From NCBI GenBank assembly GCA_016204695.1, contig JACQKD010000002.1, positions 1 to 42,706 on the forward strand: a DNA stretch of 42,706 nucleotides. The letters are read 5' to 3'. Under the pieces are notes generated by a model. That model saw only the letters and a list, made by a program, of their open reading frames with translations, was not told the origin of the DNA and ran no database searches. The position numbers and the translations under genes were made by a program. This DNA is from Candidatus Kaiserbacteria bacterium (GTDB taxonomy: Bacteria > Patescibacteriota > Minisyncoccia > Phycocordibacterales > UBA918). Of this stretch, positions 40,687 through 42,706 are shown in pieces; position 1 is the stretch's first letter, and each line of letters begins with the position of its first letter.

Positions 40687-40711
40687 GCAGTGCCAGTATA
40701 CCTTATTTTTG

Positions 40712-40784
40712 TGCGCGCTCTTGGGTTCGAACCAAGGACCTTTCGAGTATCAGTCGAATGCTCTACCAACTGAGCTAAGCGCGC
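40712..40784 (-). tRNA. tRNA-Ile(GAT)
   Basis: Minus: GCGCGCT...GCTCAGTTGGTAGAGC..TTCGA-CTGATAC-TCGAA..GGTTCGAACC..AGCGCGC-A. Confidence 0.95.
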
Positions 40785-40845
40785 TCGCGATGGCTCATAC
40801 TATACCAGAATTTGATGCCGTATCAAAGATGGTATGATGGAGGGC

Positions 40846-41274
40846 ATGAAAAAAGTATTCGTGATGCTTTGTGCCGTTGCCGCAACGCTCACCCCGGCAA
40901 CCGCGTTTGCGGCCACCTCCTCAATTCAACAGTTATTGAAAGACAGTATGTTGTTTGTCAATAAAACCCTCCTGCCGCTGTTATTTGCACTCGCGTTCTT
41001 GTTCTTTCTCGTCAATGTGGTGCGATATTTCATCGCTCACGGCGCCGACGAGAAAGGTCGCGAGCAGGCCAAGCGGCTTGCCGTCTGGGGCATCATCGCG
41101 TTCGTCCTTATGGTATCGATCTGGGGCATCGTCAATCTGCTGGTCTCTGGATTCGGCATTGACCGCAACAATGTAGTCTGTCCCGACTATCCGCCGGGGA
41201 ATCCCTGTCAGACCGGGTCCGGTCCAACGCCGATAGTCCCCTCGAGGGAGCTTTCCCCGACAACACCGATATAG
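40846..41274 (+). CDS. VirB2/TrbC-like pilin (signal peptide plus two TM)
   Basis: MKKVFVMLCAVAATLTPATAFAATSSIQQLLKDSMLFVNKTLLPLLFALAFLFFLVNVVRYFIAHGADEKGREQAKRLAVWGIIAFVLMVSIWGIVNLLV; TATGAT 7 nt upstream of this internal ATG. Confidence 0.8.
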   Translation: MKKVFVMLCAVAATLTPATAFAATSSIQQLLKDSMLFVNKTLLPLLFALAFLFFLVNVVRYFIAHGADEKGREQAKRLAVWGIIAFVLMVSIWGIVNLLVSGFGIDRNNVVCPDYPPGNPCQTGSGPTPIVPSRELSPTTPI

Positions 41275-41286
41275 GCCAAGAGAGGA

Positions 41287-41320
41287 TTCAAAATACCTCC
41301 CGTATGGGAGGTATTTTGAA
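41287..41320. terminator. Bidirectional terminator between the pilin-like gene and 16S rRNA
   Basis: TTCAAAATACCTCCC-GTAT-GGGAGGTATTTTGAA, 15-bp perfect stem. Confidence 0.8.
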
Positions 41321-41476
41321 ATTACGCACTCTCTTTTGCCGTATCCATGAGGAAGTCTTTCCTTCCAGCCGGATGATGTTTAGGACGATATCATCAGACG
41401 TCCGTTCTGCGCTCGATCGAGGCACAGAACATCGACCAATCAGCAACGTGTGCTTTACAGCACCGTGCGTTGTCCA

Positions 41477-42706
41477 ATTGGAATTAATCCACGACCAGGT
41501 TCCCCTAGCCGTGCCTTGTTACGACTTACTCCCTGTCATCGAGTTTACCGTAGGCCCCGCACTTTCCAAGCGTTCGCGCTTTTGGGCGCTGAACGCGCGG
41601 AAAGTGCGGGGACTTCGGGCACTCCCGACTCCCTTGAGTTGACGGGCGGTGAGTACAAGGCTCGGGAACGTATTCACCGCAGCGTGCTGATCTGCGATTA
41701 CTAGCGATTCCGACTTCATGAGGTCGAGTTGCAGACCTCAATCCGAATTGAGGATGCTTTTAAGGATTTGCTCCGTCTTGCGACATTGCGCCCCTCTGTA
41801 GCACCCATTGTAGCGTGTGTGCAGCCCAAGGCATCAAGGGACATGCTGACCTGGCGTCATCCTCACCTTCCTCTCCCGTGAGGGAGCAGTCTCGCCTGAC
41901 ACTTGTAACAGGCAACGAGGGTTGCGTTCGTTTCCCCACTTAAGGGAACAACTCAAGCCACGAACTGACGACGGCCATGCATCACCTGCCATACACCCTC
42001 GAAGGCTTCCCTGCTTTCACAGGGCGTGCAGTATGGTTTCTAGCCTTGGTAAGGTTTTTCGCTTAACTACGAATTAAGCCACGCGCTCCACCGCTTGTGC
42101 GAGCCCCCGTCTATTCCTTTGAGTTTTAAGCTTGCGCTCGTACTACCCAGGCGGCCCGCTTAACGCGTTAGCTTCGCCACTAAGAGGGTCGATACTCCTA
42201 ATAGCTAGCGGGCAACGTTTAGGGCGTGGAATACCGGGGTATCTAATCCCGTTCTCTCCCCACGCTTTCGTGCTTCAGTGTCAGGAATGCCCCAGCTGTC
42301 TGCCTTCGCTTTTGGTGTTCCCCATGATATCAACGAATTTCACCTCTACACCATGAGTTCCGACAGCCTCTGACATCCTCGAGTTGCGCCGTTTCCCTCG
42401 CGATCTTCGGGTTGAGCCCGAAGTTTTAACGAGAGACTAACGCAACCACCTACGCACCCTTTACGCCCAGTAAATCCGGGTAACGCTCGGGGCTTCTGTA
42501 TTACCGCTCCTGCTGGCACAGAATTGGGAGCCCCTTATTCATGCGCTGATCAATAAACTTTCTGGCGCATAAAAGATGTTTACGTCCCGAGGGACTTCAT
42601 CCATCACGCGGCGTCGCTCCGTCAGACTTTCGTCCATTGCGGAAGATTCTCGACTGCAGCCTCCCGTAGGAGTGTGGACCGTGTCGCAGTTCCACCGGTG
42701 GGGGTC
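41477..42706 (-). rRNA. rrs: 16S ribosomal RNA, partial (5' end beyond window; starts near E. coli position 305)
   Basis: Sense: ACACGGTCCACACTCCTACGGGAGGCTGCAGT, GTGCCAGCAGGAGCGGTAATAC, GGGATTAGATACCCCGGTA, AAACTCAAAGGAATAGACGGGGG, GTACTCACCGCCCGTCA, AAGTCGTAACAAGG. Confidence 0.97.

What the first reader, a model, noticed from the sequence alone, without database searches (positions are those of the whole stretch)
41477..41500. 16S rRNA 3' tail lacks the canonical anti-Shine-Dalgarno
The sense 3' end reads ...GGGGAACCTGGTCGTGGATTAATTCC, where bacteria normally have GGAUCACCUCC. Helix 45 is intact (CACGGCUA...UGGUCGUG), so the register is secure: GGAUCACCUCC becomes GGAUUAAUUCC by three substitutions, destroying CCUCC. 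No GGAGGTGATCC is present at the rRNA end, and the gene length fits an intron-free 16S. This predicts loss or retargeting of SD-based initiation.
Basis: partly seen in the sequence, partly recalled or inferred. Interest (0 to 1): 0.85.

Follow-up and report, generated by a model that had tools for sequence, protein, structure and literature searches.

The report
16S rRNA lacking anti-Shine-Dalgarno in Kaiserbacteria
The ribosomal RNA of this tiny uncultivated bacterium, and of its whole order as far as it could be read, has lost the short sequence most bacterial ribosomes use to find gene starts; many of its mRNAs instead seem to begin right at the start codon, a known but rare kind of change that is much more widespread in this group than the papers I found report.

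Summary
The 16S tail reads GGAUUAAUUCC after an intact helix 45, with no CCUCC. It is not an assembly fault: every relative in the family whose tail could be read (Candidatus Kaiserbacteria / Paceibacterota, over 25 species) carries GGATTAATTCCAAT(T/C)GGA. All 34 order members with a readable 16S end carry a CCUCC-less copy; in the class about 150 of 232 lack CCUCC by a strict pattern.

SD initiation looks lost, not retargeted. SD motifs upstream of genes are at background (3.0% vs 3.0%; E. coli, same caller, 15.8% vs 0.8%), and words complementary to the new tail are not enriched. Operon-leading genes carry a -10 box at exactly -12 (31/213, p=3e-18), the spacing expected of leaderless mRNAs. 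An aSD-bearing relative looks the same, so SD use probably faded before the aSD decayed.

The old aSD site still forms a small covarying hairpin with the bases just downstream, probably a pre-rRNA 3'-end processing element. YbeY and a diverged bS21 gene are adjacent; Era was not detected.

Bacteria lacking both aSD and SD are published, including single Campbellbacteria and Wolfebacteria genomes. So: a new member of a known kind. I found no report of the clade-wide extent, hairpin or leaderless signature.

The parts
41477..42706 (-). 16S rRNA gene, 3' 1230 bases; 5' part cut by the contig end
   Evidence: cmscan RF00177, 1116 bits, model 302-1533; only 16S found in the genome
41490..41513 (-). 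Helix 45 (CACGGCUAGGGGAACCUGGUCGUG), intact, with the GGAA loop that carries the dimethyladenosines in E. coli
   Evidence: sequence; pair swap relative to the family's GCGGAAGC loop region
41480..41490 (-). 16S tail GGAUUAAUUCC; 41480-41484 (AUUCC) is where CCUCC normally lies
   Evidence: conserved in the family
41473..41482 (-). Hairpin UCC-AAUU-GGA over the former aSD and the bases just downstream
   Evidence: covarying stem across the order: 0 of 2000 partner swaps reach the observed mean stem; pair types per level
41290..41317 (.). Inverted repeat AAAATACCTCCCGTATGGGAGGTATTTT between 16S and the convergent gene, terminator-like
   Evidence: read from the sequence; no separate test
40711..40784 (-). 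tRNA-Ile(GAT) downstream of 16S; a tRNA lies downstream of 16S in relatives too

Best explanation
The 16S rRNA truly lacks an anti-Shine-Dalgarno, and the organism starts translation without SD pairing. Shown: the tail, its conservation in family and order, absence of SD or tail-complementary motifs upstream of genes, and a -10 box at exactly -12 before many operon-leading starts. Inferred: many first genes are leaderless, so the ribosome takes a 5'-terminal AUG, while downstream genes rely on A-rich, G-poor upstream sequence with a pyrimidine at -1. Inferred order of events: Era (which binds GAUCACCUCC) and heavy SD use were lost early in Paceibacteria, and CCUCC then decayed. What selection still holds at the site is a short hairpin across the 3' end, most likely a pre-rRNA signal for maturation (the 3'-end nuclease YbeY is present).
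For: Tail and helix 45. Same tail in over 25 family members; all 34 readable order members have a CCUCC-less copy and about 150 of 232 class members lack CCUCC. SD motifs at background in own genome versus strong in E. coli with the same caller. No pairing with own tail. TANNNT at -12 in 31/213 leading genes, p=3e-18; also G019 21/120 and aSD-bearing G301 10/83; E. coli 0/83. GGAGG avoidance in coding regions weaker in aSD-less genomes: 0.86 and 0.92 versus 0.66 in G301 and 0.38 in E. coli. Hairpin covariation. YbeY found in the genome, next to a diverged bS21 gene. Era not found above cut-off.
Against: Gene starts come from a simple home-made caller on about 42% of the genome. No transcript starts or mature 16S end are known. 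The -12 box marks about 15% of leading genes, so other genes need another route. SD poverty before aSD loss rests mainly on one aSD-bearing genome; two small aSD-bearing samples agree, but aSD-less G227 shows a nominal SD excess (p=0.018, uncorrected, 81 genes). The bS21 match is below Pfam's cut-off (17.7 of 27 bits). The claim of specific coding-region SD depletion is itself disputed (PMC6107199).
Confidence: 0.8

Rival explanations
1. Retargeted SD: the ribosome still uses tail pairing, but with a new motif complementary to UUAAUUCC (for example GGAAUU).
For: The tail is strictly conserved in the family, as a functional pairing element would be.
Against: Complementary words are at background upstream of starts (2.0% vs 2.4%); duplex energy z = 0.3 against shuffled tails. 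The conservation is accounted for by the hairpin, whose sequence changes with compensation elsewhere in the order.
Confidence: 0.05
2. The tail stays folded in the mature 30S: the hairpin is a permanent extension of the 16S 3' end, with the diverged bS21 adapted to it, blocking any SD-like pairing.
For: The stem covaries across the order and overlaps the former aSD; a bS21 homologue is kept and diverged.
Against: Class members with CCUCC show a similar possible hairpin, CUCC-UUUCUA-GGGAG, around the expected 3' end, which suggests a precursor element removed on maturation; the stem has only 3-5 pairs and some tails lack it.
Confidence: 0.15
3. Artefact: assembly error, contaminating or decayed 16S copy, with a canonical copy missing from the assembly.
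For: The contig ends inside the 16S gene, its first 300 bases were not found elsewhere, and the genome is only 96% complete.
Against: Independent MAGs of over 25 species carry the same tail and next bases; h45 shows a compensated pair swap; none of the 34 readable order members has a canonical copy except G178, on a short stray contig beside its own CCUCC-less copy.
Confidence: 0.02

Closest known systems
[quoted passage not shown]
   Same: 16S tail without CCUCC after an intact h45, few or no SD motifs; the Campbellbacteria and Wolfebacteria entries are also CPR
   Different: Reported for isolated genomes; here the loss covers an order and much of a class, with a conserved hairpin and a leaderless-type -10 signal, none of which that paper describes in the sections read
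Flavobacteriia without aSD (Chryseobacterium, Elizabethkingia, Riemerella; PMC6107228)
   Same: Variant or missing aSD together with missing SD
   Different: Unrelated lineage; independent loss
Bacteroidetes with sequestered aSD (Flavobacterium johnsoniae, PMC6847099)
   Same: mRNAs lack SD although translation is normal; A-rich context near the start matters; bS21 present
   Different: There CCUCC is retained; here it is gone. No SD is seen before the bS21 gene in the loci inspected
Leaderless-mRNA prokaryotes (PMC5397173 and references in it)
   Same: Pribnow-box-like signal just upstream of start codons
   Different: Many of those keep an aSD; transcript starts are not mapped here
Mammalian mitochondrial small-subunit rRNA, which lacks an aSD (PMC10582724)
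   Same: Small-subunit rRNA ends after h45 without CCUCC
   Different: Organelle; not homologous as an event

Membership tests
aSD-less, SD-scarce bacteria (class iv of PMC10783764) | Helix 45 intact, tail without CCUCC | tested here: met
aSD-less, SD-scarce bacteria (class iv of PMC10783764) | Same variant in all 16S copies | tested here: inconclusive
   One copy found in a 96%-complete genome; gene cut by the contig end
aSD-less, SD-scarce bacteria (class iv of PMC10783764) | Variant shared by close relatives | tested here: met
   Over 25 family members with the same tail; order-wide loss
aSD-less, SD-scarce bacteria (class iv of PMC10783764) | No SD enrichment upstream of genes | tested here: met
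   3.0% vs 3.0% control; E. coli 15.8% vs 0.8%
Retargeted SD system | Motif complementary to the new tail enriched upstream of starts | tested here: not met
   2.0% vs 2.4%; z = 0.3
Bacteroidetes-type sequestered aSD | CCUCC retained in the 16S tail | tested here: not met
Bacteroidetes-type sequestered aSD | bS21 present | tested here: inconclusive
   Diverged 79-84 aa homologue next to ybeY, 17.7 bits against a cut-off of 27; relatives score up to 25.7
Leaderless-mRNA genome | -10 box at the fixed spacing expected if transcription starts at the AUG | tested here: met
   31/213 at -12, p=3e-18
Leaderless-mRNA genome | Transcripts that start at the A of AUG | not testable with these tools
   Needs transcript-start mapping

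The most novel reading that the evidence does not exclude
Across most of Paceibacteria the SD:aSD system has been dismantled, several times, and in this order the old aSD site has been taken over by a short hairpin that stays in the mature 30S, giving a ribosome with a permanently folded 3' tail that initiates wholly by leaderless or context-dependent recognition, with a bS21 adapted to the folded tail.
Probability: 0.15. Interest if true: 0.75.

Novelty: new member of a known kind. Interest (0 to 1): 0.55.

Why it matters
The CCUCC tail is among the most conserved sequences in prokaryotes (20,495 of 20,648 re-annotated 16S ends, PMC6107228). Its absence from a species-rich order, and from about two thirds of the class members sampled, means SD-independent initiation is a clade-level trait of a large branch of bacteria. 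Gene finders that lean on SD motifs may misplace starts here. Because the class holds both aSD-bearing and aSD-less families, it is a natural experiment on what keeps the aSD in place; the hairpin suggests that part of the constraint at this site is 3'-end processing rather than mRNA pairing.

Tried and rejected
Misjoin or base error: rejected by the same bases in dozens of relatives. Second 16S copy: none found. A canonical relative inside the order: G178 looked canonical on a 4-kb contig with a foreign-looking h45, but its own copy at C2:172180 reads GGAACATATCCAATTGG. Retargeted SD: no enrichment. Era loss as the trigger: Era was not found above cut-off in aSD-bearing or aSD-less Paceibacteria, so it can at most be permissive. 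An SD kept before the bS21 gene: not seen in the three loci inspected. Samples from G205 and G390 (9 and 4 genes) were too small to use; G487, G538 and G227 (65-81 genes) are weak evidence. The paper on smaller CPR ribosomes (PMC9297842) is not in the library.

Full report
Observation. The window ends inside a 16S gene on the minus strand (42706->41477, Rfam 1116 bits, model 302-1533). Its 3' end reads GTCGTAACAAGG-CACGGCTAGGGGAACCTGGTCGTG-GATTAATTCCAATTGGA. Helix 45 is intact, so the tail is GGAUUAAUUCC where bacteria have GGAUCACCUCC. It is the only 16S found in the 835-kb genome. The gene is cut by the contig end, so its full length and introns cannot be judged.

Not an artefact. In the same family every genome whose tail could be read, over 25 species, has GGATTAATTCCAAT(T/C)GGA. 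A scan of GTDB contigs for the h45-plus-tail pattern returned 43 records, mostly titled Candidatus Kaiserbacteria, Paceibacterota, Parcubacteria or Patescibacteria, with single Yonathbacteria, Nomurabacteria, Wolfebacteria and Elulimicrobium labels. A tRNA lies downstream of 16S in relatives as it does here, with no 23S nearby.

Extent. In a draw of 392 genomes of the class, 232 show the conserved 16S end and 82 have ..ACCTCC. About 150 therefore lack it by this strict pattern, which also counts single changes such as GGATCACTTCTT as lacking. In the window's order 34 of 41 drawn genomes have a readable end and all carry a CCUCC-less copy; the one canonical hit is a stray contig. In the other classes of the phylum a narrower pattern found one case in about 355 genomes. 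That pattern misses sites whose last base is G and demands two changed bases, so it is a lower bound.

Initiation signals. About 350 kb of the genome was analysed with a simple hexamer-based gene caller. Strong SD motifs lie at -20..-4 in 3.0% of genes against 3.0% in a control stretch; SD 4-mers in 8.4% vs 11.1%. The same pipeline on E. coli K-12 gives 15.8% vs 0.8% and 49.6% vs 5.3%. Words complementary to the new tail occur in 2.0% vs 2.4%, and duplex energies with the tail equal those of shuffled tails. In operon-leading genes TANNNT peaks at exactly -12 (31/213; background 1.9% per offset; p = 3e-18), where the -10 hexamer is expected if transcription starts at the AUG. The peak recurs in relative G019 (21/120) and in aSD-bearing G301 (10/83), but not in E. 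coli (0/83). Genes inside operons have A-rich, G-poor upstream sequence and a pyrimidine at -1.

Order of events. G301 has CCUCC yet no significant SD excess (3.6% vs 1.2%, p = 0.28), which suggests that SD use faded before the aSD was lost. Two more aSD-bearing samples also lack a significant excess; one aSD-less sample (G227) shows a nominal excess (p = 0.018, uncorrected). These samples have 65-81 genes each, so this step is inference. Avoidance of GGAGG in coding regions is weaker in the two aSD-less genomes (0.86, 0.92) than in G301 (0.66) and E. coli (0.38); PMC6107199 argues that such depletion is mostly not SD-specific, so I give it little weight.

What is still conserved. Across the order the tail and the next bases keep a hairpin: UCC-AAUU-GGA (window), UUC-AAAUU-GAA, UUCC-AAC-GGAA, UUUUA-AAGG-UAAAA. 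In 56 distinct tails the mean stem exceeds all 2000 partner swaps, and 1 of 2000 reaches it when Kaiserbacteria-type tails are left out. Pairs change in step, with C-G, U-A and A-U at tail position 10. Relatedness of the sequences inflates the swap test, and a few tails show no stem. Class members with CCUCC show a similar possible hairpin, CUCC-UUUCUA-GGGAG. I read the hairpin as a pre-rRNA 3'-end element that outlived the aSD. YbeY is encoded, directly after a diverged bS21 gene. Era, which binds GAUCACCUCC (PMC10582724), was not found above cut-off in 26 genomes of the order or in 30 class members with or without aSD, in line with PMC12641178; its loss may permit tail decay but is not enough to cause it.

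Literature. Joint loss of aSD and SD is known in Flavobacteriia, Mycoplasma and reduced symbionts (PMC6107228) and in a few CPR genomes including Campbellbacteria and Wolfebacteria (PMC10783764). No paper found in the open-access library describes the clade-wide loss, the hairpin or the leaderless signature in Paceibacteria; most subscription papers are outside that library.

Verdict. Loss of SD-based initiation is well supported by sequence evidence; retargeting is not. The kind is known; the scale and anatomy appear new.

Noticed in passing
window 41555-41611 (minus): The 16S has a roughly 42-nt extension in the helix 44 region, a long perfect-stem hairpin (CCCCGCACTTTCC...GGAAAGTGCGGGG), absent from eight relatives aligned.
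   Followed up: partly
L176:1208-1866 (G000:C10:42207-42865): Diverged bS21 gene directly followed by ybeY; the neighbourhood recurs in several relatives.
   Followed up: partly
L124:2478-4527 and G014, G015, G017, G026, G040: 16S genes interrupted by introns (a group I intron in L124; split matches) in the same family.
   Followed up: no
L055 / G178:C6: A 4-kb contig with a canonical 16S end in an order member whose own 16S is CCUCC-less: probable contamination.
   Followed up: yes
window 40834-41274 (+): A T4SS-pilin-type gene (PF18895) lies convergent to the 16S gene, with a terminator-like inverted repeat between them; 16S is not followed by 23S.
   Followed up: no
own genome, gene starts: Strong preference for a pyrimidine at -1 (T about 50%, C about 30%) in operon-leading and internal genes, also in aSD-bearing G301.
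   Followed up: partly
G227 (family f122): An aSD-less class member with a nominal excess of SD-like motifs upstream of genes (13.6% vs 2.5%, 81 genes); unexplained, perhaps chance.
   Followed up: no
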